Positions 5,952 through 25,997 of a stretch of 25,998 bases of DNA are shown piece by piece (position 1 is the stretch's first letter; every line of letters starts with the position of its first letter). Below the pieces are notes generated by a model. The model had not been told where the DNA came from, ran no database searches, and saw only the letters and a program-made list of their open reading frames with translations. The position numbers and the translations under genes were made by a program. Source of the DNA: a virus; the IMG/VR virus record IMGVR_UViG_3300022221_000024, positions 1 through 25,998 of that record, one strand, 5' to 3'.

Positions 5952-8559
5952 TAACTTTATTAAAGGTTTGATCACTGAAGCTGGTGAGATGACTTTTCCT
6001 GAAGGTGCCTCTACAGATGAGTTGAACTGTGATTTACGGCGTGATGGTACTCGTAGGCGTAGACTAGGCGTTAAGCTAGAGGATAGCCACGTTTTAGAAC
6101 CTGCTACCCAAGCTGCTTTAAATGGCACTAAACCTTTGTCTAGCTTTACTTGGAAGAATGTTGCAGGTAATCCTGACATAGAATACCTTGCAGTTCACAA
6201 CGGACAATTTGTTATCTTCTACGATCAAAGTGCACCTCCTTATTCTGGAAAGTACTTAGGGTTTGTTGATTTAGCTGATGTTGATACTAGCCCAGCCTAT
6301 ACGGGTATGGACAAGCAAGCAAACGCACTTTCATTTTCTTCTATTAATGGTTTATTAATAGGAACACACGCAACTATTGGAAATAGTTTTACAGTATCAG
6401 AAGAAATAGCTGCTCTTGTTGGCTCAACAGACTCTTCAGGTTCTGGCACACCGGCGCAAGTACACATAAGGGTGCAAAACCCAGCAGTAGGAATGTCTTT
6501 TATTGTTACAGGTACAAATGCCTCTGGAGTAGTTATTACTGAAACTATTACTGCTGGTAGTGGTCATAACACTCCTTGGACGCCAGCCACAAGTAATACT
6601 TTTGCTACTGTAAGAACTGTAGAATTAACTGGACAAAGTACTCCTCAAGGTTATGTAAGGGTAGGGATTCAATCTGACGAAGATTCTATTTTTAACGCAA
6701 CAGGTGGATCACCTCTTGGTTTTTTGAGGTTAAACGGTATTTCTACAGGGGTTAATGGTCAAAAATATTTTCAAATAGAAAAAATAGATTTTAAAATAAG
6801 AGACTTTAGGTACTTTACGACTAATTTAACAAGTCTAAGCAAAACTACAGGTTCAGTAACTCCTGTTGAAGTAGGTGACGCCCGTATATACGATACTTTA
6901 AATTCAGGGTGGGCTTCTAAAAGTACTGGAAGAGTTGTGTCTAATAATGACGTTTCAGCTTTATACTATTTCAGAGCTAATTCTAGCACTCTTAATAAAT
7001 TTCCCGCATTAACTCATCCTTGGTTTTCAGGTAAAAATACTTCAGATCAGTTTGATGTAGATGAGTGGAAAAAAGTAGACGGGGGTAATTCTCTTTCAGG
7101 CAACGGACACTTTGTATTAGATTTCTTTAATAACTCTTCTAGAGCAGTTGAGGTTGCAGATGCAAACGCCCAATTACCTACTGCTACACTTTTATCAGCT
7201 GATCTTACCGATCCTATAAATTCTCGTTGGAGATCTTGTGAAGCCTTTTCAGGAAGAGTTTTCTTTGCAGGTTTAGATGACTCCGAATACGGTGGTTCTA
7301 TTGTATTCTCTAAACTTATTGACTCAAGAGAAGATATAGGCGCTTGTTATCAACAAAATGATCCTACCTCTGAACATTTATCCGCTTTGCTTCCTACTGA
7401 TGGTGGCATGATTACAATACCTGATGCTGACAAAATACAAAGACTGTATGCTTACCAGAGTTCTATCTATGTATTTGCTGAGAATGGGGTCTGGCAGATA
7501 AGTGGTGTTGATGGGGTATTTAAAGCTGATGCTTATTCTGTCAACCGTGTAAGCCGTGTGGGTATTCTTAATGCTCAGAGCTTTGTGGCTGCTGATGGTG
7601 CACCTTTCTGGTGGTCACGTTACGGTATCCACACACTTAGCACTGATCCAGTGTCAGGTCAAGGTGCTGAACAGAATATTTCTGTAACAACTATACAGGG
7701 TTTCTGGGATAGTATTGATGCTGATGCTAGAGAAAAAGTTATTGGTAAGTTTGATCCTATTAACAAAAGAATATACTGGGGCTATCCTAACAAGGATGCT
7801 TCCCCTGAGTATAAAATAAACAACTTTTTAATACTTGACATAACTCTTGGTGCTTTTTACCCTTGGAAAATTGAAGACAAAACATCTCAACAGTATGAAT
7901 CATTTATTGTGGGCTTTGAGTTTTATTCAGGTTTTGGTTCAGATGAATTAGTTAGAGATGTTAGAAGTGGGACTGATGGGGCAGATGATGTTGTAGTAGG
8001 AAGTGATGATGTTGTCTCAACAGCTATAAACTACCACAACACAGGTGATCCAAATATAATTCTACTTGTTAGTGCTACTGCTAACCAAATACCTAGTAAC
8101 AGACTTACTATGGGTTCTTTTTCAGGTGGTGACTATAAGGATTGGGGTGAGACTGACTACACATCCTTTGCTGAAACAGGCTATGATTTCGTAGGGGATG
8201 CTGTCTTAAAGAAGAATGCACCTTACCTTGTCACCTACTGTCGGGTAACTGAGACAGGATTTACAGGAAACCCTCAGGCTGGATACGAGGCTGTTAATCC
8301 TTCAGGTCTTCTTGTCTCATCTTCCTTTGACTTTAGAGAAACCTTTAGCCCTTCTCAACAAGTATACAGAAAAAAGTATCCAGTTGTTGTAGATCCTAAC
8401 AATTTAGACTTGTATGATTACCCTGAAGATGTTATAACTTCTCGTGTAAAGCTTCGTGGACATGGACGTTCAATGAGGTTAAGATACGAAAGTGAAACTG
8501 GCAAGGACTTCATACTTATTGGATGGGGTATTGTCCAAGGTAGGAACCCTAGGTATTGA
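5920..8559 (+). CDS. Tail nozzle, tail tubular protein B-like, with inserted Ig-like domain
   Basis: A protein of 879 aa in the place of T7 gp12, the nozzle through which DNA leaves. Its N-terminus carries the typical pattern FIKGLITEAGEMTFPEGAS, DELNCDL and RRRRLGV (about 10-49), as in gp12-like proteins. Residues about 172-253 look like an inserted beta-sandwich (Ig-like) domain: GMSFIVTGTNASGVVITET, then SNTFATVRTVELTG, a pattern frequent in phage structural proteins. The part from about 490 resumes the beta-propeller-like core (IYVFAENGVWQISG and similar strands). The stretch 6300-7330 is visibly more AT-rich and uses AGA/AGG arginine codons, unlike the later core. The start overlaps the preceding gene by 32 bases; the stop overlaps the next start as TTGA. 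Confidence 0.65.
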   Translation: MPQSLNQKAVNNFIKGLITEAGEMTFPEGASTDELNCDLRRDGTRRRRLGVKLEDSHVLEPATQAALNGTKPLSSFTWKNVAGNPDIEYLAVHNGQFVIFYDQSAPPYSGKYLGFVDLADVDTSPAYTGMDKQANALSFSSINGLLIGTHATIGNSFTVSEEIAALVGSTDSSGSGTPAQVHIRVQNPAVGMSFIVTGTNASGVVITETITAGSGHNTPWTPATSNTFATVRTVELTGQSTPQGYVRVGIQSDEDSIFNATGGSPLGFLRLNGISTGVNGQKYFQIEKIDFKIRDFRYFTTNLTSLSKTTGSVTPVEVGDARIYDTLNSGWASKSTGRVVSNNDVSALYYFRANSSTLNKFPALTHPWFSGKNTSDQFDVDEWKKVDGGNSLSGNGHFVLDFFNNSSRAVEVADANAQLPTATLLSADLTDPINSRWRSCEAFSGRVFFAGLDDSEYGGSIVFSKLIDSREDIGACYQQNDPTSEHLSALLPTDGGMITIPDADKIQRLYAYQSSIYVFAENGVWQISGVDGVFKADAYSVNRVSRVGILNAQSFVAADGAPFWWSRYGIHTLSTDPVSGQGAEQNISVTTIQGFWDSIDADAREKVIGKFDPINKRIYWGYPNKDASPEYKINNFLILDITLGAFYPWKIEDKTSQQYESFIVGFEFYSGFGSDELVRDVRSGTDGADDVVVGSDDVVSTAINYHNTGDPNIILLVSATANQIPSNRLTMGSFSGGDYKDWGETDYTSFAETGYDFVGDAVLKKNAPYLVTYCRVTETGFTGNPQAGYEAVNPSGLLVSSSFDFRETFSPSQQVYRKKYPVVVDPNNLDLYDYPEDVITSRVKLRGHGRSMRLRYESETGKDFILIGWGIVQGRNPRY

Positions 8560-8999
8560 TAAACATTAGAAAAGCGACAGAAGAAGATGTCTTTGACATT
8601 CTTGTTTTAGCTAGAGAGTTTTCAAGAGAAGCCCCTAAGTCTCATAAGTGGAACAAAGATAAGACAGAACAGTTTATACTTAGTTCAATCTTAAACTCTG
8701 TGTCAGACGTTTTAGTTCTAGAAGAGGACGATGAAGTAAAGGGTGCTCTTGTTTGTATTGTACACGAAATGTACAACTCTCTTACAGTACTTGCAACTGA
8801 ACTAGCATGGTTTGTTTCAAAAGATTACAGAGGTAAAAAGGGTTCTCTTTTACTTTTAAACTCTTTTGAAGAGTGGGCTAAAAACAATAATGCAGACTAT
8901 ATTACTTTATGTGATATAGAAAGCATAGCTAGTCTAGAAAAACTCTACGTTAGACGAGGTTATAAAAGAACTGAGTCTACTTACATGAAGGAACTTTAG
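8556..8999 (+). CDS. GNAT family N-acetyltransferase
   Basis: A protein of 147 aa with the GNAT fold pattern: it begins INIRKATEEDVFDILVLA, the usual first strand and helix, and has the acetyl-CoA-binding motif A as WFVSKDYRGKKGSLLLLNSF (about 89-108) and the late motif LEKLYVRRGYKRT (about 128-140). Such enzymes move an acetyl group from acetyl-CoA to an amine of a protein or small molecule; the substrate is unknown. The start is a TTG at 8556 that overlaps the nozzle stop codon (TTGA), which fits because the protein fold begins exactly there. All but one of its arginines use AGA/AGG and the gene is AT-rich, so it may be a recent arrival. It sits inside the tail gene block. Confidence 0.88.
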   Translation: MINIRKATEEDVFDILVLAREFSREAPKSHKWNKDKTEQFILSSILNSVSDVLVLEEDDEVKGALVCIVHEMYNSLTVLATELAWFVSKDYRGKKGSLLLLNSFEEWAKNNNADYITLCDIESIASLEKLYVRRGYKRTESTYMKEL

Positions 9000-9000
9000 T

Positions 9001-9492
9001 ATGGGTGTAGCAACGACACTAGCGGTTTTAGCCGTAGCTGGAACAGGCTATAGTATCTATCAAGCTGATCAAGGTCAAATTGCAGGTAAAAAACGAGCAA
9101 AAGCACAGCAACGTCAACAACAATTAGCTGCGACTAGATCTCGTCGACAAGCCCTGAGAGAAGCTCAAATGCAACGATCTCAGACCTTAGTAGCTTCACA
9201 AGCACTGGGTGCAGCAGGTGGTTCAGGAGTAGCTGGTGGTCTTACAGGCCTACAGTCTCAGCTAGGGTCTAGCCTAGGGTATTCAGGTATGCAAGGGCAA
9301 TTGTCTGGTCAGATCTCATCCTTGGGTGTACAACAGCAAGCAGCTATGGCAAGGTCACAAACAGGTGGAGCAATAGCTGGTTTAAGTATGCAGGGTTTAA
9401 GTATGATGCCCTCAGGAAGTTTAAGTAGTGGCCTTTCTAAAGTAGGTGATGCCTTTACTCTTGGTACTAGAGGTCTAGGGAGCTTTAATTAA
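9001..9492 (+). CDS. Internal virion protein, gp14-like position
   Basis: A protein of 163 aa with a hydrophobic N-terminus (TLAVLAVAGTGYSIYQA, about 6-22) that could insert in a membrane, followed by a very Gln/Arg-rich helix (about 25-62) and a Gly/Ala/Gln/Ser-rich remainder with repeated LSGQ- and SMQG-like segments. Composition and position (after the nozzle, before two giant proteins) match the small internal core/ejection protein of T7-like phages, which enters the host envelope with the DNA. An AAGGA site lies in the end of the GNAT gene just before its ATG. The identification is by context and composition, not by motif. Confidence 0.65.
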   Translation: MGVATTLAVLAVAGTGYSIYQADQGQIAGKKRAKAQQRQQQLAATRSRRQALREAQMQRSQTLVASQALGAAGGSGVAGGLTGLQSQLGSSLGYSGMQGQLSGQISSLGVQQQAAMARSQTGGAIAGLSMQGLSMMPSGSLSSGLSKVGDAFTLGTRGLGSFN

Positions 9493-12400
9493 TGGCAACT
9501 ATTCTAGGACAGGGCATTATAAAGTCAGTCTTCTTAGGTGATGATGAAGAAGAAACTAACGTCACACCTATAGAAGATCCTCGTTCATCTGCTGTTGAAC
9601 GAAAGGATACTGCTGTCCTAGGTGCTACAGGTAAATTACCTGAAGAATTAGAGATTCCTCATGCTGAGATAACTGAGAGAGTAAACGTAGCTTTGTCTGC
9701 TGCTGTAAGTTCTTACACAGATGAGGGTGCTGAAGTATATGAGACAGCAGAAGAATTACAGGATCAGGCCAAGAAGGGTTCTGATCTTGTTTCTATTGGC
9801 GACTACTTCGATAACTCATTCCATGCTATGGATAACCCTAGGCTTACAAGTGCCCAGAACCTAGCATCTATGAAGTATCAGCTAACAGTTGACAAACTAA
9901 CTGATGCTATTCAGGATCGTGCAGCCTCAACGAATGCTGGTTCAGTCTTGAATTGGTTTGATCGTTACATCCTAAGACAGTTTCCTATCGGTGCATTTGA
10001 AGATCTTACAATGAAACGTAAGAATGTTTCAGAAGAGTTTGCTCGTGCTCTTGCAGGTAATATGTCTATGGAAGAGTATGAAACATTACTTGACACAAGA
10101 CTAGACGAGTATCTTGGTCAGGGTGTTTTGTTTGCGGATAACCCTGCTGCTGTTGCTGATCTGTATGCAACAATCGAAAGGTTCGGGAACAACGACATAG
10201 CTGTTACTGAGGCTATTATTGGGGCTATCGACATATTCCCCTTTGTGTCAGCTGGTTTCAGCATAGGCGCTAAGAGTGTAAAGGCCGGTAAAAATCTAAT
10301 AACTCTTTCTCAAAATTCTGCAAAGCCCTCTTCTAAAGGGGCTATTACGATAACAACAAGTAAAGGGTCAGACGGTAAAGAAGTTGTAGAACTTAGAGTA
10401 GATGGTAAAGTTGTAGAAACATCTGATAGTATATCTGAAATTAGAAAGATTGCTAAAACAATTACAGATATTTCTCAGTCACCCACAGCATCTACTCGTG
10501 CAGGTGTTATTAACGGACCTGACGCTGCAACGGATGTCGCTGAGAATATAGCTGCACGTTCAGATGACCCTGAGAACTTAGCAAGCATGGGACCAAGCCT
10601 TACAGATCCTTTGTCTGACAATGCTCCTGTACGTCCACTAGGGCAAGCTGCTATGAATAACCATACAGCCACACAAGTAACAAAGGAAGCCTTTGAGTAC
10701 GTTGGACGTACTATGGGTGACATATATGATCAAAAACTTTTACAAGAATATATCACTACTAGGGTTAGTAACATTGCATCTACACTTAATCGGGGTGTTA
10801 TCAACTCAAAGCTTGACGGACGAACAGAGAAGCTTACCGTTCTCCTTGGTCATCCAAAGACAGGCAAAGCTTTAACTAAAGATGCTGCTGAAAAGTATGC
10901 TGAGAATGTACCTGAAGCTAATGTCGTAGCTATCAACGCTGACAAGGGTGCATATGCTGTTCAGGTAGATGAAGTAATTAAGATGGATGACTTCATTAAG
11001 ACTGACAAGTATGCCCAACTGCAACACGTAGAGGGTGTAACAGGTAAGCTGTTCAGCAAACTATTTCAGAGACTACCAACTTCTGGGTATCATTTACTTG
11101 ACAATGCTGATGCAACTAACTTAGCCTACCGTGCTGAAAGTGGTGCTGTCAGGCTTAATCAACTTAATAAGCCAATGATTGATCAAGTCAACAAGATGTC
11201 AGGTAAAGAGATCGATGAGGTAGGGGATATTATTCAGAGGCTACAGTCTCAGGATCTGTCTTCTCAAAGAAACTGGTTTACAGATGATGAGTTCAGTGAT
11301 CTCTGGAGGGCTGACCACAAAGGTATAGCACCTTCTCAAAAAGTGCTGGATGGTTACAGAGCTTTAGTCAATCTGTCTGACCACACTTATCATTTACGTG
11401 CCACAAGTCTTGTCAGAAGAATGCATGCAAATGGCTATCGTCGGATAACTGTTAATGTTGGTGGAGAAGAAACATTCCTAGCTGGTAAAAAACTAGGGGA
11501 GCTACCTTCAGATGTTAATGAGTTTATCGATGCTGACTCAGGGGTAAAGTTTACCAAGGATGACTATGACGGACCTATGGTTAATGTCTTTGAAATTGAC
11601 ATGGACATTGGCGGCATCAAGTATGTTGTAGACACCCGTACAATAAAACCCTTAGAGCCTGAAGATGCACTAGGTTATAATGCAGGTGGCCCTCGTGTAA
11701 ACCCTGAGGCAACTGACTTTGTTGTAATGCTAGACAAAGATGGTAAACCCTTAAAGGTAGCCCTGTCAGCTAGTTCAACTAAGTCGGCTACTACGGCTGC
11801 TAAACAGATGGGTAATCTTTACAGAGCATTGAAGGCCGGTGTTTTGTCAGATGATCTTGTCAAGGCTAACAACTCTTGGTATCCAGCTTTAACTAAAGTA
11901 AAAGACTTTGAGGATTTTGCAATAGATGCAGGGTTGAACCTAGACGTAGACGATCTTCAGTTCGCAACTAAACGCCGTGATGAAAACATCTTTACCGCTG
12001 GACAGGAAGATGCATTCGTTCCTAATGGCTCACTGACAGAATTTGCTATCTTCTCTAACAGACGTAATGACAATCCTTTGATTCACTTTGGTGGTTTGTC
12101 TACAGCTAATGACAACCCAATTAATGCGGTACTAAACCAAGTTAATACTGAAAGCAGACGGTTAGCATTCTCTAATTACAATGATGCTATTCAGGTTTCA
12201 CTAGGTAAAAAGATTAAACAACTAGCTGAACCAAATAGCCCTAATATAAACTATAGGGCTTACTATAGAAATATAGAAAACTACTTGCCTAAGGATTCAA
12301 CTAATCCTATCATAAGAAAAATATATGAACGCAAGAATATAACAGAGATGCGTCAAGGTGCTGAAGGTTGGGGTGACAAGTGGGCTGATCGTGTGTCTCA

Positions 12401-14027
12401 GGATATGTCTAATCTTGTCTATGACAACATCGGTGTTAAGTTTAACCCTAGCAACCCTGCACATGCTTTGACTAACTTTGGCTTTAAGACAACCTTCTTT
12501 GCTGATCCTTTTCAGATGCTTCTTCAAGCGGCACATTCAATAAACATTGTAGGTATGGCAGGTTTAGATGACGGTATAAAAGGTGCTGTCATGGGTAATC
12601 TTCTTCTGAAATCTTTAAAGCTAGAGGGTAAACCTTTAGACATTATGCTTGATCGTATGGCTAAACGGTTTGGTTACAGCAAAGATGAAATGACAGAGGT
12701 ACGTCAACTATTTATTGACAGTGCTCGTTATGAGATTGACCCGACAAACCTCATTGAAGGTTATCAAGCCCCAACAAACTCTGTCTCTCGTTCTCGTAAG
12801 AAAACTGCCCGTGTTGTAGGCAACAGTCTCAACAAAGGCTGGGAGAAAACTATGAATGCAGGTATGTTCTTCTTCAATAAAGGGGAACAAATAACTCGTG
12901 TGACATCTTTTGGTGCAGCAGTTCGTAAGTGGAAGGCTCAGAACCCTGACAAATCTATACTGTCTCCTGAAGGACGTACATGGGTTACAAATAAAGAACA
13001 GGCATACTCCTTAAACATGACAAACATGAGCCGTTCTCAGGTGCAGCAAGGTTTGCTGAGAGTACCTACTCAGTTCTACAGCTATATGCTAAGATCCTTT
13101 GAAGGTATCTTCGTAGGAAAAGACCTTACTGTACGGGAAAGAATGGGCTTTGCTGCTATGGTAGGGCCGTTCTTTGGTATGACAGGGCTAGGCTTATCTT
13201 CAGCTACCTCATCAGCCGTGGATTCTATGAACAGCTACCTTCCCGACGATATGCAGATAGAAGCTGGCAACGATATGTATAGGCTGGTAAAGAATGGACC
13301 TATCGATGCTTTGTTTGCATGGGCTGATGACAGATTAGTGGGTGATCGTGCACCTGAAGTGTCAGCAGCAAGCCGTGTCTCTTTAGGTGATGGTGTGGTA
13401 GACACCTTTAGGAACTATCGTGATGCATCTGCCCTTGAGATTGTTGGTGGTGCAGGTGGGGGTAAAGCTGGTGATGCATTAGTTGATTTTGCTCAGACAC
13501 TAGGGGCTATTAAACGTGGTGACGAAATTGTTGTCAAAGAAAAAACAATTGAGTTGTTCAGAAACTTTAAGTTCGTAGACAACCTGTCTAAAGCTTACGG
13601 TATCTTACAGTACGGAACATACTCATCTAAAACAGGGGCTAGAATAGATGCAAACTTTACGAACATGGATGCTTTATTTGCAGCAGCAGGTATCCCTCTT
13701 GAAGAAGTACAGCAAGTCTATGACTCAAAAGATATTATCTATAGCTCCAATAAAACTTATCGTCAGTATTCTAAAGAGATAGATAATAGAATAAATTTGT
13801 TCTGGGATGCCGTCAATAACCAAGATGCTGAAAGAGCTAACGAATACATGGACAGTATTTATTTGTCTATTAGTCGATTTACAGGGTTAAGCCCTGAGTT
13901 ACGCCAACGACTAAGAGATCAGGTACTAAGAGGGTTCTCAGACACGACAACCTTTGAACGTGTAGAACAGTTACGGCGTATCGGCAGAGCCACAGAAGCA
14001 GAACAACTACTTGAAACAACGAGGTAG
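9492..14027 (+). CDS. Giant internal virion (DNA ejection) protein, 1511 aa
   Basis: The largest gene in the window. In T7-like phages proteins of this size in this place (gp15, gp16) form the inner core stacked on the portal and are ejected to make a channel across the host envelope. No enzymatic motif is evident. The protein is mostly helical and charged, with an amphipathic or hydrophobic stretch at about 237-262 (IIGAIDIFPFVSAGFSIGA) and another at about 1218-1237 (FAAMVGPFFGMTGLGL) that could contact membrane. A segment at about 280-312 (KGAITITTSKGSDGKEVVEL) looks like a small beta insertion in more AT-rich DNA. The conserved-looking C-terminal third contains MNAGMFFFNKGEQITRVTSF and RVPTQFYSYMLRSFEGIF. 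It overlaps the preceding gene by one base. Confidence 0.7.
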   Translation: MATILGQGIIKSVFLGDDEEETNVTPIEDPRSSAVERKDTAVLGATGKLPEELEIPHAEITERVNVALSAAVSSYTDEGAEVYETAEELQDQAKKGSDLVSIGDYFDNSFHAMDNPRLTSAQNLASMKYQLTVDKLTDAIQDRAASTNAGSVLNWFDRYILRQFPIGAFEDLTMKRKNVSEEFARALAGNMSMEEYETLLDTRLDEYLGQGVLFADNPAAVADLYATIERFGNNDIAVTEAIIGAIDIFPFVSAGFSIGAKSVKAGKNLITLSQNSAKPSSKGAITITTSKGSDGKEVVELRVDGKVVETSDSISEIRKIAKTITDISQSPTASTRAGVINGPDAATDVAENIAARSDDPENLASMGPSLTDPLSDNAPVRPLGQAAMNNHTATQVTKEAFEYVGRTMGDIYDQKLLQEYITTRVSNIASTLNRGVINSKLDGRTEKLTVLLGHPKTGKALTKDAAEKYAENVPEANVVAINADKGAYAVQVDEVIKMDDFIKTDKYAQLQHVEGVTGKLFSKLFQRLPTSGYHLLDNADATNLAYRAESGAVRLNQLNKPMIDQVNKMSGKEIDEVGDIIQRLQSQDLSSQRNWFTDDEFSDLWRADHKGIAPSQKVLDGYRALVNLSDHTYHLRATSLVRRMHANGYRRITVNVGGEETFLAGKKLGELPSDVNEFIDADSGVKFTKDDYDGPMVNVFEIDMDIGGIKYVVDTRTIKPLEPEDALGYNAGGPRVNPEATDFVVMLDKDGKPLKVALSASSTKSATTAAKQMGNLYRALKAGVLSDDLVKANNSWYPALTKVKDFEDFAIDAGLNLDVDDLQFATKRRDENIFTAGQEDAFVPNGSLTEFAIFSNRRNDNPLIHFGGLSTANDNPINAVLNQVNTESRRLAFSNYNDAIQVSLGKKIKQLAEPNSPNINYRAYYRNIENYLPKDSTNPIIRKIYERKNITEMRQGAEGWGDKWADRVSQDMSNLVYDNIGVKFNPSNPAHALTNFGFKTTFFADPFQMLLQAAHSINIVGMAGLDDGIKGAVMGNLLLKSLKLEGKPLDIMLDRMAKRFGYSKDEMTEVRQLFIDSARYEIDPTNLIEGYQAPTNSVSRSRKKTARVVGNSLNKGWEKTMNAGMFFFNKGEQITRVTSFGAAVRKWKAQNPDKSILSPEGRTWVTNKEQAYSLNMTNMSRSQVQQGLLRVPTQFYSYMLRSFEGIFVGKDLTVRERMGFAAMVGPFFGMTGLGLSSATSSAVDSMNSYLPDDMQIEAGNDMYRLVKNGPIDALFAWADDRLVGDRAPEVSAASRVSLGDGVVDTFRNYRDASALEIVGGAGGGKAGDALVDFAQTLGAIKRGDEIVVKEKTIELFRNFKFVDNLSKAYGILQYGTYSSKTGARIDANFTNMDALFAAAGIPLEEVQQVYDSKDIIYSSNKTYRQYSKEIDNRINLFWDAVNNQDAERANEYMDSIYLSISRFTGLSPELRQRLRDQVLRGFSDTTTFERVEQLRRIGRATEAEQLLETTR

Positions 14028-14032
14028 ACTTT

Positions 14033-16525
14033 ATGTCAGTATTTAATCCTACACTTGAAACTGAAATTAGGTATGAGCAGCCAGTTCAAGCACCTCGTCA
14101 GTTTAGTCCTGTTGCAGCATTGGCTGATACAGCTACACAAGCCTTAAAGGTATTTGAGTCTTCCAAACCAACTCAAGCTTCTTTAAACCAAGCTATGGTT
14201 AATCAGTTCGGGGATGCTCTTGGTCGTTCTTTTGATATCCAACAAGGCCGAGATAATGGTAAACTTACCTCTTCGGAAGTGACAGAGTTAAAAACATTTG
14301 CTAGAAAATTTATTGAATCAAGCCCTAAAGCTATACCTGAAGGGCAAAGGCAAGCATATGAAGCTCTTACAGGTGAAAGCTGGGATGCGGTAAGCTTTAA
14401 AAGCAATGAGTTTTACGAGAAAGAACAGCTTTTACAGAGTGATCTAGGTCGGACTTTAGTTGCGTCTACAAAAATACTAAATTCTGAGGCTACCTCTGAA
14501 CAAATAAATGAGATTGTTCTAAACTCTATGGCTGAGGTAAATATTCTTAAACAGCAAAAAGCATTACAGGATGCTCGTGTAGCGATGGGTATGCCAGTTG
14601 ATGCTGGACCTGTTGTGGAAAGCCTGAGAACCGACTTTAGCCTGTTGTCAGCAAGTTTCTCTGAGTTTATTAAAGACGGAATAGTAACACAAGACGAAAT
14701 AAACTCTGCCTCTACTTCTGTAAGAGCTTTAATTTCAGGTCAGTACTCTCAGTACGAGGGTAATGCTCAGGTTAAAGCAGTCACAGATCAGATGTTTGGT
14801 CTTGTTGAAGACCTTAGGAAATTTGATACGGATGCTAACACTCTTGATGCCATTCACATAGCCCTAAACGAAGCTGAGTTTAACCCGTTTACGATCTCTA
14901 CTATACGGGCTATGATTAAAGAAAATCCTATGGAGTTTAAAAACTCAATACTTGGGACGTTTGAAGAAAAAGGTAAGACTTGGGTAGATGGTCTTAGTAA
15001 GATAATGTCCTCATCCCCTCAGGAGAATATAGAGCTAGTAGATATTTTTAGCAGACCTCCTGAACTGCCTGATACCTCTGGAGATAAGCCAGCCTACTTA
15101 ACAATACCTAGTGTCAAGGACAATCCAGAGGAATACAAACAAGTTCTAGAAGGACTAGGTGCTGTTACCTCAAGTACAAGCAAGCAAAAAGTTTTAAACA
15201 ATGAAGACGTGCGTAATACTTGGCTGAACAGTGTAAATCTTTTAAGCAGTCTTGTCGCATCTCAGTCAGATGAATACATCATGGGTGATAAACTTCTGTC
15301 TAAGTTTTCAAACAACCAGCTTGTTTCTACCCTAGAGTCTATCTATCAGGTAGATGGAGACAATGCTGCCCAAACTAATGACGCCCTTCAGAATGCTTTA
15401 AACTCTGAGTACCTTCGTCAGAAGATGGAGCTTGATCAAAGGTTAAGTGCAGGTGATGAACCTTACTTTATGGTTGATGGGGATAAGTTAGTCCTTAACT
15501 TAGACTTTCTTAGAAGTAAGATGGGTGATGTTCCTCAAGGTAATCGTCGTATGGCTGCTATTGAAGCAACTAATGCCCGTATAGAACAAGTCGGTGGGCT
15601 TGAACAGTTCCAAAAGTTACCTCAGAGTAGACGTAATGAAATTCTAGCTGGCAGTAACTTAGAAAGAATACTGGACACTAGGTTCGGAACAACATTAAAG
15701 TTGTTTAATAACTTAAAAATGATTGACAAGAAGAGGGGTCTTCTGTTAGAATTAGAAAAAAGATATCCCGCAGCTACCCAAGCTTTTAGAGGTGTTCAGG
15801 GAGATCCAGAGCTAGACGCCTTTGCACAGGAAGCTCTTAGTTCTGTCATGAATGATGACCGTATCTTCTCTCAGACACTTGACTCACTTGGCCCTGACCA
15901 ACCTCAGGCTAGTGAAGCGACAAGCATATCTGATGCCGCACCAATGGCAGCTATGAGGGCCGTACCCCCTTCCACAGAGGGTGGTCCTACTTCCCCTTTA
16001 GGTGATGTAGAAGTACCCTCACAGGAGATGCCTCTTCAAGAACAATCTCCAGAAACTGCACCTCAAATAACTCAAGGCACTTCGTTTGAAGATGCTTTAG
16101 TATCAAGGCTAATTAAAGAAGAAGAATTTAAGGGTACAGCTTATAGAGCTACAGAAGGTGAAACCTACCTTACGTTAGGTTACGGACATTATGGTTCTGA
16201 TGTTAAAGAGGGTCAAACTATCACAGAGGAAAAAGCACTAGAGTTGCTTCGCCAAGACATAAATGAAAGATTACCGGCTGTAAGAAAAGCTATACCCAAC
16301 TTTGACAATCTTTCTCAAAATTTAAAAGTAGAGATAGCTCAAAGCTGGTTCAGAGGGGGTATGTCAGGAAGCCCTGAAACAATAAAGCTTATAAATTCTG
16401 GAAAATTTAAAGAGGCTGCTACAGAGTTTTTAGATAATGAGGAATACAGAACAGCCAGAAAAAGAGGTAGAGCAGGTATTATACCTAGAATGGAGGGGGT
16501 AGCAGATGCTCTTAGGTCTGAATAA
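14033..16525 (+). CDS. Internal virion protein with C-terminal GH24 lysozyme-like domain
   Basis: A protein of 830 aa. Residues 1-610 are helical with no known motif and resemble other phage core/ejection proteins. A Pro/Ala/Ser/Gln-rich linker (about 615-683) leads to a lysozyme-like domain (about 684-830): KEEEFKG with E697 as the likely catalytic Glu, RATEG, then TLGYGHYG, and a final ARKRGRAGIIPRM. This matches the GH24 (T4 lysozyme) family, which cleaves the glycan of peptidoglycan. At the position of T4 Asp20 it has Ala706, and the Thr (T714) is displaced by two residues. As part of a virion protein it would open the cell wall during infection; with no separate endolysin in view it might also serve in lysis. 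A GAGG site precedes the ATG. Confidence 0.75.
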   Translation: MSVFNPTLETEIRYEQPVQAPRQFSPVAALADTATQALKVFESSKPTQASLNQAMVNQFGDALGRSFDIQQGRDNGKLTSSEVTELKTFARKFIESSPKAIPEGQRQAYEALTGESWDAVSFKSNEFYEKEQLLQSDLGRTLVASTKILNSEATSEQINEIVLNSMAEVNILKQQKALQDARVAMGMPVDAGPVVESLRTDFSLLSASFSEFIKDGIVTQDEINSASTSVRALISGQYSQYEGNAQVKAVTDQMFGLVEDLRKFDTDANTLDAIHIALNEAEFNPFTISTIRAMIKENPMEFKNSILGTFEEKGKTWVDGLSKIMSSSPQENIELVDIFSRPPELPDTSGDKPAYLTIPSVKDNPEEYKQVLEGLGAVTSSTSKQKVLNNEDVRNTWLNSVNLLSSLVASQSDEYIMGDKLLSKFSNNQLVSTLESIYQVDGDNAAQTNDALQNALNSEYLRQKMELDQRLSAGDEPYFMVDGDKLVLNLDFLRSKMGDVPQGNRRMAAIEATNARIEQVGGLEQFQKLPQSRRNEILAGSNLERILDTRFGTTLKLFNNLKMIDKKRGLLLELEKRYPAATQAFRGVQGDPELDAFAQEALSSVMNDDRIFSQTLDSLGPDQPQASEATSISDAAPMAAMRAVPPSTEGGPTSPLGDVEVPSQEMPLQEQSPETAPQITQGTSFEDALVSRLIKEEEFKGTAYRATEGETYLTLGYGHYGSDVKEGQTITEEKALELLRQDINERLPAVRKAIPNFDNLSQNLKVEIAQSWFRGGMSGSPETIKLINSGKFKEAATEFLDNEEYRTARKRGRAGIIPRMEGVADALRSE
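16492..16496 (+). promoter_or_regulatory. Ribosome binding site deciding the lipoprotein start
   Basis: GGAGG lies nine bases before the ATG at 16506, whereas the alternative ATG at 16530 has only a weak AGG fourteen bases upstream. This favours the upstream start, which lengthens the n-region of the signal peptide by eight residues. Confidence 0.65.
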
Positions 16526-24451: not shown

Positions 24452-25480
24452 TTAATGAGTATCTCTCCAGTTCTTACCTATGTCAGTTGAACCTGCGAGA
24501 GGGCAGGTCATGTCAAAGTTTTTACCTGCATCGACAATCGACTGACGTTGGATCTCACCTAACAACTCAGCATCACTGTACTCACCACACACCTCTGTCT
24601 GCCATTCATCGTGAGGCCATGTCACCAACCTGAAATCAATCCACTGTCTCTTGGCACGGTGCACCCACTGCAATGCAGCATGTTTCATAATGGTTGACTC
24701 ACCGTTCTGTAACATGCCAGCTAGTGTCTTGTGTTCACTAGGAACCTTGACCCTGCGTCCATCTAAACCTGTGAACCAACCTCGACTAGCTATCTCAGGT
24801 ATACGTTTCTTCTTTAACTTAGCTAGACCCTGAATAGATTCCATAAAGTTATCCACTGCCTGTGCAGCTTCCTTTGAGTTTACCTTTAGGATCTCAGCTA
24901 TCTTAGCATTACCTGCACCTAAAAGGAAGGCATAGATGAATGTCTTCGCCATGTCTCTTGTGATGTGAGACATACCCAAAGCCTTACGGTTTAGGTTGTG
25001 TATGTCAGTCTCATCTTCCTTCTTACCTGACACAATAGCATGGACGTATTCTTCTGACCGCATGAGGTGAGCAAGTACCCGTAACTGAATACCCTCAGCA
25101 TCCGTGCCAACAAGATAAGATCCCTTGGGTACACACCACAGTGCACGAAACTGACCATCATACTTAGCCTTAACCTGTTCGACTGCTGTCTTAGCATCAC
25201 CATGAAACTCAGCAGGGATGTTAGCTTGATTAGGGTTACGGTGTGCCATACGTCCTGTCCATGCACCAATGTGCACAAAGCTACCATGAATACGCTTGTC
25301 ATCCTTAACGTGCCCTAGCCACTCCACCAGTGAGCTTCTGCGTCCTTCTAGTGTCAACCACTCAGCTAACCGTTTACCCCCTTCAGGGGCGTCCTCAGGG
25401 AGTGTGTTAAGGTTTGCCTCAGATAAGGTCCACCCGTACCTAGCAAACTTACTTCCACGATCTTGCTTGTTCTCTTTCAT
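24452..25480 (-). CDS. Family A DNA polymerase, C-terminal polymerase part
   Basis: 342 aa holding the palm and fingers of a T7-type DNA polymerase. Motif A is LVGTDAEGIQLRVLAHL (D127), motif B is RDMAKTFIYAFLLGAG (R175, K179, Y183) and motif C is WPHDEWQTEV (H290, D291, E292). WTLSEANL and HGSFVHIGAWTGRMAH precede them as in T7-like enzymes. At the site equal to E. coli Pol I Phe762 it has Tyr, as in T7; at the site equal to Tyr766 it has Leu187. The N-terminal part lies in a different frame (+1 step), overlapping by 32 bases. The ATG at 25480 has AAAAGGG about ten bases upstream, so separate translation is possible. It ends in a normal WRDTH terminus. Confidence 0.92.
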   Translation of the reverse strand: MKENKQDRGSKFARYGWTLSEANLNTLPEDAPEGGKRLAEWLTLEGRRSSLVEWLGHVKDDKRIHGSFVHIGAWTGRMAHRNPNQANIPAEFHGDAKTAVEQVKAKYDGQFRALWCVPKGSYLVGTDAEGIQLRVLAHLMRSEEYVHAIVSGKKEDETDIHNLNRKALGMSHITRDMAKTFIYAFLLGAGNAKIAEILKVNSKEAAQAVDNFMESIQGLAKLKKKRIPEIASRGWFTGLDGRRVKVPSEHKTLAGMLQNGESTIMKHAALQWVHRAKRQWIDFRLVTWPHDEWQTEVCGEYSDAELLGEIQRQSIVDAGKNFDMTCPLAGSTDIGKNWRDTH

Positions 25481-25997
25481 AAATGATATGCCCTTTTGTC
25501 TTATCGAATGGTTGCCATCCAGCTTCCCATAGTCTTTCTATTCTTTGTTTAGGTGATGATGGTTTAAACTCTATGTAATCATAGCATACCAGTTCGTTGG
25601 GGTACACTGACTTATCCAATGCGGTTGCAAAGTATTGTTGGTTGGCATTGACAACACTGGAGTAGAGGGTTCCATCAGCTTTCTTTCTATACTTGATACG
25701 ATTAACCTCGACAAGCTTAGGCGGGAAGTCTTTCTGAAAACCTTTCTCAAGTTCTTCCATGCGTACACAGATCTCACCTAGTAATTCTTCTGCCCTGTCC
25801 TCGTCGAAGTAGAAGCCATTGTCTGACATGTTCTCACATACAATCTGTATGTCATGCTCACACCGTAAGGCTTCTTCCCACTCAGGTGCGTGTATTATAT
25901 CCTTGAAATGATGGTATAGTTTAACTGTAACAACTACGTCCTGTATGCAGTACTCAATCATTTCATCAGTTAGTTTTGAGTAATCATTGAAGCCTAA
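25449..25997 (-). CDS. Family A DNA polymerase, N-terminal part (partial)
   Basis: Open to the right edge of the window, so the start is missing. The visible 182 codons begin LGFNDYSKLTDEMIEYCIQD, where MIEYCIQDVVVTVKLY is exonuclease motif III of the proofreading domain, and continue through the thumb (FKPSSPKQRIERLWEAGWQP, KTKGHIIYERE). It then meets a TAA stop, while the next base register continues directly with GSKFARYGWTLSEANL, the sequence expected to follow in one polypeptide. The gene is therefore either truly split between thumb and palm, joined by a frameshift, or affected by a one-base sequence error. Exonuclease motifs I and II lie outside the window. Confidence 0.88.
   Translation of the reverse strand, partial: LGFNDYSKLTDEMIEYCIQDVVVTVKLYHHFKDIIHAPEWEEALRCEHDIQIVCENMSDNGFYFDEDRAEELLGEICVRMEELEKGFQKDFPPKLVEVNRIKYRKKADGTLYSSVVNANQQYFATALDKSVYPNELVCYDYIEFKPSSPKQRIERLWEAGWQPFDKTKGHIIYEREQARSWK

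What the first reader, a model, noticed from the sequence alone, without database searches (positions are those of the whole stretch)
25440..25500. DNA polymerase broken over two frames at the thumb-palm boundary
Sequence shows: the N-terminal frame stops at 25449 and the palm/fingers frame, one base out of register, starts at 25480, with 32 bases of overlap. The two together read as one normal T7-like polymerase. The downstream frame has its own ATG and a plausible, if weakly spaced, ribosome site. Inference: options are a natural two-subunit polymerase, a +1 (or -2) frameshift during translation, or a one-base assembly error. I see no classic slippery site. A true split at this place would give separate exonuclease/thumb and polymerase subunits.
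Basis: partly seen in the sequence, partly recalled or inferred. Interest (0 to 1): 0.6.

Follow-up and report, generated by a model that had tools for sequence, protein, structure and literature searches.

The report
Naturally two-piece phage DNA polymerase
The replication enzyme of this marine phage really is made as two separate proteins, and the cut point is a hot spot where different selfish DNA-cutting genes come and go in related phages, so the 'break' is a natural gene arrangement and not a sequencing error.

Summary
It is not an error. Three other metagenome contigs carry the same junction, and isolates ICBM2 and CRP-5 are annotated with two genes. In all 93 distinct split relatives without an insert, the polymerase ATG lies exactly 16 nt after the start of the conserved KGH motif. 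In 37 others one or two genes sit precisely at the junction, mostly homing-endonuclease-like (Endonuclease VII, HNH, HNH_3, GIY-YIG/T5orf172). They use the same ATG and usually end over a new polymerase ATG. In Cobavirinae phage T5S1-k141_653015 and relatives the halves lie 0.3-3.2 kb apart, some across the primase/helicase, so no frameshift or splicing could join them. Split and fused states changed at least 3-4 times, including one re-fused gene inside the split clade. Best reading: a natural two-subunit family-A polymerase whose junction is a recurrent homing-endonuclease insertion site, with the window in the empty state. It works like Aeh1 NrdA or phage 25 gp43A/B, but is an unusually plastic new case in a T7-like polymerase. 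Assembly of the halves is inferred.

The parts
25449..25997 (-). Polymerase subunit 1: 3'-5' exonuclease + thumb half (5' part lies beyond the contig end). The complete homologue in ICBM2 is 304 aa.
   Evidence: the intact ICBM2 homologue matches DNA_pol_A_exo1 (PF01612) and RNase_H_2; the window piece keeps the Exo III region (YCIQDVVVT).
24452..25480 (-). Polymerase subunit 2: palm/fingers half, 342 aa, with motifs A (GTDAEGIQLR), B (RDMAKTFIYAFLLGAG) and C (PHDEWQ).
   Evidence: Pfam DNA_pol_A E 1.8e-33; 63-80% identical to the Veravirus polymerases CRP-5, ICBM2 and CRP-4.
25449..25480 (-). 32-nt overlap coding the tail of subunit 1 (YEREQARSWK*, from the second base of the Y codon) and the start of subunit 2 (MKENKQDRGS); site where relatives carry endonuclease genes.
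25478..25480 (-). Start ATG of subunit 2, at +16 from the K codon of KGH. The same ATG starts the inserted endonuclease gene in nearly all insert-bearing relatives (L047 is the exception).
   Evidence: 93/93 uninterrupted relatives.
25491..25496 (-). SD-like AAAGGG (codons Lys-Gly of KGH), 10 nt from the ATG.
   Evidence: Gly codon is GGA/GGG in 93/93 uninterrupted relatives against 31% in the rest of the gene; Lys AAA 73/93 against 26%. Caveat: fused relatives with KGH also use AAAGGA.

Best explanation
The phage (Cobavirinae, Veravirus-like) encodes its T7-like family-A DNA polymerase as two polypeptides: an exonuclease/thumb subunit and a palm/fingers subunit. Each has its own start; the second starts inside the end of the first by internal, probably translationally coupled, initiation at a conserved ATG behind an AAAGG(A/G) motif. 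The two subunits presumably fold together into the ordinary T7-like polymerase shape, with the break in a surface linker. The junction is a recurrent insertion site for free-standing homing-endonuclease genes: an arriving gene uses the existing ATG and supplies a fresh ATG for the polymerase half just before or over its own stop codon, so both polymerase genes stay translatable. The window is the empty (uninvaded or cured) state. Shown: two genes, conserved architecture, inserts, unlinked halves in relatives, repeated state changes. Inferred: that the subunits associate and that the inserted genes home.
For: Same junction in other contigs L002, L003, L004, and two annotated genes in isolates ICBM2 and CRP-5. 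93 distinct uninterrupted split loci with ATG at an invariant place. 37 loci with inserts exactly at the junction, in which ORF1 has its own stop and the polymerase its own start; insert families Endonuclease_7, T5orf172/MUG113, HNH, HNH_3. Near-identical pairs with and without insert: L079/L068 98.3 and 99.6% flank identity, L081/L069 96.9 and 99.1%, L113/L248 98.9 and 98.6%, L014/L010 99.0 and 97.9%, L018/L010 98.3 and 97.2%. Unlinked halves: phage T5S1-k141_653015 exo half 9610-10470, primase/helicase 10667-12241, pol half 13195-14208; also L368-L371, L386; in T5S1 the pol half has its own AAGGAG ribosome site. AlphaFold2 of the natural re-fused relative L318: mean pLDDT 88.5, pTM 0.83, the only segment under 50 is residues 299-309, inside the junction (KGH begins at 285, YGW at 318); best PDB matches are T7 gp5.
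Against: No protein data: neither complex formation nor activity of the halves is shown. The exonuclease subunit of the window itself is cut by the contig end, so its first part is not seen. No inserted endonuclease has been shown to cut or home. The AAAGGA motif is also present in some fused relatives, so it is weak evidence for initiation by itself.
Confidence: 0.93

Rival explanations
1. Programmed +1 ribosomal frameshifting in the overlap makes a single fused polymerase, perhaps with the truncated exonuclease as a second product.
For: All 93 uninterrupted split loci have the same +1 offset and a short overlap, which is the geometry a frameshift would need.
Against: ORF1 stop codons are TAA (81) or TAG (12), never the slow TGA of known +1 sites in the counted class, and the codon before the stop varies widely (AGA, CGC, GGC, AGC, CGA, TAC, CGT, AAG and others); tail length varies (overlap 26-53 nt). 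The constant offset follows simply from the constant ATG. Loci with inserts, and loci with halves 0.3-3.2 kb apart, cannot use it, and their frame offsets include all three values.
Confidence: 0.03
2. One-base sequencing or assembly error in a normal single gene.
For: Close relatives with a single intact gene exist (CRP-4; L163-L209).
Against: The same junction appears in L002-L004, two isolate genomes and dozens of other contigs; frame-conserved ATG in 93/93; flanks up to 99% identical.
Confidence: 0.005
3. A self-splicing intron or a split intein joins the halves at RNA or protein level.
For: Phage polymerase genes often carry group I introns, and the authors of the OM43 phage paper suggested this for their split polymerase (PMC10580990).
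Against: No Rfam family at gathering score in 14 loci including ten with endonuclease inserts; inserts are almost wholly filled by the ORF; in the window only 32 nt of overlap exist, no room for intron or intein; tails after KGH are only 10-19 residues long.
Confidence: 0.01
4. The exonuclease half is a decaying remnant and the palm/fingers half works alone as an exonuclease-free polymerase.
For: The two genes are separable and in T5S1-like phages sit apart.
Against: Exonuclease motifs and the thumb half stay intact in the split relatives aligned, and the half is kept even when moved upstream of the primase; the thumb lies in ORF1 and family-A polymerases need it (general knowledge).
Confidence: 0.03

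Closest known systems
Split nrdA of Aeromonas phage Aeh1 with homing endonuclease mobE (reviewed in PMC2988022)
   Same: An essential replication-linked enzyme coded as two ORFs around a free-standing homing-endonuclease gene; intact single-gene relatives exist; no splicing.
   Different: Here the enzyme is a family-A DNA polymerase; several endonuclease families use one site; the empty split state is the commonest; re-fused and unlinked forms also exist.
gp43A/gp43B of Aeromonas phages 25 and 44RR (family-B polymerase; PMC2988022, PMC2993671)
   Same: A phage replicative DNA polymerase in two genes; an endonuclease may have invaded an already split gene; the phage 25 halves co-purify with activity according to the review.
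   Different: Unrelated polymerase family (B against A), different position, and 44RR has an untranslated intercistronic sequence instead of an overlap.
Split DNA polymerase of OM43 phages MEP401/MEP402 (PMC10580990)
   Same: Marine Zobellviridae-related phages with a family-A polymerase in two ORFs and a small ORF between.
   Different: Split at another place, immediately before motif A (gp13 ends ...LFLSRYGE, gp15 begins MILNADAKALEW); the middle ORF has no known family, and the authors leave open an intron.
DNA polymerase of Lentibacter phage ICBM2 and Roseobacter phage CRP-5 (Veravirus)
   Same: The same split at the same site, already annotated as two CDS.
   Different: Nothing essential; terms for a split are absent from the Cobavirus and RCA-phage papers searched.

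Membership tests
T7-like family-A DNA polymerase | Palm/fingers with motifs A, B, C (PF00476) | tested here: met
   Window ORF2: DNA_pol_A E 1.8e-33; GTDAEGIQ, RDMAKTFIYAFLLGAG, PHDEW present.
T7-like family-A DNA polymerase | 3'-5' exonuclease domain with Exo I-III | tested here: met
   Complete in homologues (DIET, HNxxxFD, YCxxDVxVT); in the window only Exo III is visible because the contig ends.
T7-like family-A DNA polymerase | T7 gp5 fold | tested here: met
   AF2 model of the re-fused relative L318 matches T7 gp5, E 2.6e-36, TM 0.76.
Gene in pieces with a homing-endonuclease insertion (Aeh1 nrdA/mobE type) | Gene coded as two ORFs while relatives have one | tested here: met
Gene in pieces with a homing-endonuclease insertion (Aeh1 nrdA/mobE type) | Free-standing endonuclease gene at the split | tested here: not met
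   Absent in the window itself (32-nt overlap); present in 36 of 130 distinct split relatives, with one more carrying a non-endonuclease insert. The window is therefore the empty state of such a site, not an occupied member.
Gene in pieces with a homing-endonuclease insertion (Aeh1 nrdA/mobE type) | Two polypeptides assemble into active enzyme | not testable with these tools
   Needs co-purification and activity assay.
Homing endonuclease genes (inserts in relatives) | Nuclease domain of a homing family | tested here: met
   PF02945, PF10544/PF13455, PF01844, PF13392 above cut-off; L019 and the HNH-repeat type only weakly or not matched.
Homing endonuclease genes (inserts in relatives) | Cleavage of the insert-free allele and copying into it | not testable with these tools
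   Only presence/absence in near-identical flanks was seen.
Programmed +1 frameshift gene | Conserved slippery codon and slow stop | tested here: not met
   Variable codon before stop; TAA/TAG stops.
Intron- or intein-interrupted polymerase | Intron structure or intein blocks at the junction | tested here: not met
   No Rfam hit; 32-nt overlap only in the window.

The most novel reading that the evidence does not exclude
The thumb/palm linker of this polymerase is a long-lived docking site: by being split with overlapping start and stop, the gene tolerates a turnover of unrelated homing endonucleases (and other small genes) at no cost, and in a sister lineage the two subunits became independently placed genes, so that the exonuclease/thumb and polymerase subunits can evolve and perhaps be regulated or exchanged separately.
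Probability: 0.35. Interest if true: 0.65.

Novelty: new variant of a known kind. Interest (0 to 1): 0.55.

Why it matters
It gives a natural two-subunit version of the T7-type DNA polymerase, a textbook single-chain enzyme, with fused, overlapping, interrupted and unlinked forms all present in living phages. That makes it directly testable how an essential enzyme survives being cut in two, whether splits begin as endonuclease insertions, and whether the exonuclease/thumb part can act as an exchangeable subunit. It also warns that polymerase-gene phylogenies and gene callers may treat these as broken genes or errors.

Tried and rejected
Assembly error (rejected). +1 frameshift (rejected). Intron/intein (rejected). 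SD codon test: GGA/GGG in 93/93, but fused KGH relatives also use AAAGGA, so it cannot be called selection for initiation. L318 scar searched against all loci for an endonuclease remnant: no match beyond itself, so how it re-fused is unknown; it is one contig. A first tree suggested a single origin of the split; a wider tree with T5S1-like and other fused relatives rejected one clade for all split genes (AU p 3e-5), while one clade for the window group plus L392 and L434 is not rejected (p 0.08). Direction of change (split first or re-fusion) cannot be told. SIO1, CRP-804, HTVC103P and Pasto polymerases checked and found to be single genes. Papers searched for a discussion of this split: none found in the library.

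Full report
OBSERVATION. The window holds, on the minus strand, an open frame that runs in from the contig end and stops at 25449, and a second frame from ATG 25480 to 24452. The second is +1 relative to the first; they overlap by 32 nt. ORF1 ends KTKGHIIYEREQARSWK*; ORF2 begins MKENKQDRGSKFARYGWTLSE. ORF2 is DNA polymerase family A (E 1.8e-33); the complete ORF1 homologue of ICBM2 has the 3'-5' exonuclease domain. By sequence alignment of the fused relative CRP-4 the junction falls at about residues 355-360 of T7 gp5, before the KGAPVVDDEVL stretch.

NOT AN ERROR. The nearest contigs L002, L003 and L004, from other metagenomes, have the same ATG and the same stop. Lentibacter phage ICBM2 and Roseobacter phage CRP-5 (isolates, Zobellviridae, Cobavirinae, Veravirus) are annotated with two polymerase genes that overlap at the same site. 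CRP-4, placed in the same genus, has one 626-aa gene. Scans of IMG/VR with ORF2-type proteins gave 195 distinct loci with both halves: 93 overlapping, 37 with a gap, 65 fused.

THE OVERLAPPING CLASS. In 93 of 93 the polymerase ATG lies 16 nt after the first base of the K codon of KGH, always +1. The ORF1 stop varies in place (overlap 26-53 nt) and is usually the TAA inside A/C/T-AAG-TTT, which codes the conserved KF of the polymerase; the codon before it is not conserved and the stop is TAA or TAG. That is not what a programmed +1 site looks like. AAAGG(A/G) upstream of the ATG is universal, but some fused relatives share it, so I count it as compatible with initiation, not as proof.

THE INSERTS. 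In the gapped class the DNA between the halves is one gene, in a few cases two. The gene starts at the same +16 ATG, in the +1 frame over the ORF1 tail, in all but one case (L047, whose gene appears to have lost its 5' part). In most it ends ATGGATGA, so that the polymerase gets a new ATG 8 nt before the insert ends and reads MDERGxKFxxYGW. Several families occur: Endonuclease VII type, T5orf172/MUG113 (GIY-YIG-like), HNH with a helix-turn-helix, HNH_3 with an AP2-like tail, an HNH type with repeats and only weak matches, and one (L019) without a Pfam match; L079 carries genes that are not endonucleases. L142 has two in a row. In L097, L098 and L113 the insert still begins with the polymerase's own first residues (MTVNKDINKDRGD), the mark of an insertion into an already split gene. 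No Rfam intron was found.

RECENT TURNOVER. Near-identical flanks with and without insert, or with different inserts, show present-day gain or loss: L079/L068 (98.3 and 99.6%), L081/L069 (96.9 and 99.1%), L113/L248 (98.9 and 98.6%), L014/L010 (99.0 and 97.9%), L018/L010 (98.3 and 97.2%) (junction DNA). On a tree of the polymerase half the insert label needs 9 changes, at least 7 forced by well-supported branches. L318 has a single frame across the junction, with 99.3 and 98.2% identical flanks to split L321: a re-fusion, resting on one contig.

UNLINKED HALVES. In Cobavirinae phage T5S1-k141_653015 the exonuclease half (9610-10470) and the polymerase half (13195-14208) are both annotated DNA polymerase but lie on either side of the primase/helicase and several small genes. 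L368, L369, L370 and L371 have the halves 2.4-3.2 kb apart and L386 1.5 kb, with the primase/helicase between them in those examined (L368, L370, L371, L386); others are 0.3-0.8 kb apart; all split at the same linker. The T5S1 polymerase half starts behind its own AAGGAG. In these phages no frameshift or splicing can give a single chain. This is the strongest evidence that the halves work as two polypeptides, and by homology it carries over to the window. A tree on both halves needs 4 changes between split and fused; one clade for all split genes is rejected (AU p 3e-5), so split and fused states changed repeatedly at this one linker; which came first is not resolved.

STRUCTURE. An AlphaFold2 model of L318, the natural single-chain version, is confident (pLDDT 88.5, pTM 0.83) except in residues 299-309, inside the junction (KGH begins at 285, YGW at 318). 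Its best solved matches are T7 gp5. The cut therefore falls in a flexible linker between well-folded parts, where two chains could plausibly assemble as one.

MECHANISM. Most likely both subunits are made from one message, the second by internal or coupled initiation at the +16 ATG, and fold together. An endonuclease gene arriving here takes over that ATG and provides a new one for the polymerase, so it costs the phage little. Shown: gene architecture, inserts, turnover, unlinked relatives. Inferred: association and activity of the halves, homing of the inserts.

COMPARISON. Genes in pieces around homing endonucleases are known: Aeh1 nrdA/mobE, T4 gene 60/39 with mobA, phage 25 gene 43 (PMC2988022). 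The split of OM43 phages MEP401/402 is at another place, before motif A (PMC10580990). What is different here is the family-A polymerase, the many endonuclease families at one site, the common empty state, and the fused and unlinked forms side by side. The split is visible in GenBank annotation but terms for it are absent from the papers I could search. I call it a new variant of a known kind.

Noticed in passing
L367 (PQ867845.1) 9200-14900 and L368 3936-7004: Strings of small ORFs in T5S1-like phages end with a shared C-terminal motif P-(K/E/M)-E-(F/Y); the DNA behind it is typically (A)AGGAGTT just before the next start, so the shared peptide tail is probably the ribosome-binding site of the next gene.
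   Followed up: partly
L361 (MEP401, OP830906.1) 6111-8221: The OM43 phage polymerase is split at another point, right before motif A, with a 77-aa ORF of unknown family between the halves.
   Followed up: partly
L047 and L048, between the polymerase halves: The GIY-YIG-like insert seems to have lost its 5' coding part: the +16 ATG frame closes early and the domain is reached from an internal ATG; possibly a decaying endonuclease.
   Followed up: partly
L142 2033-3000: Two endonuclease-like genes in tandem at the polymerase junction; the second begins with MQDSVTRGDK, resembling a former polymerase N-terminus, as if a second insertion hit the same codons.
   Followed up: partly
window 8556-8999 +: TTG-start ORF that reads like a GNAT-type acetyltransferase amid the structural genes (judged by eye; no family search run).
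   Followed up: no
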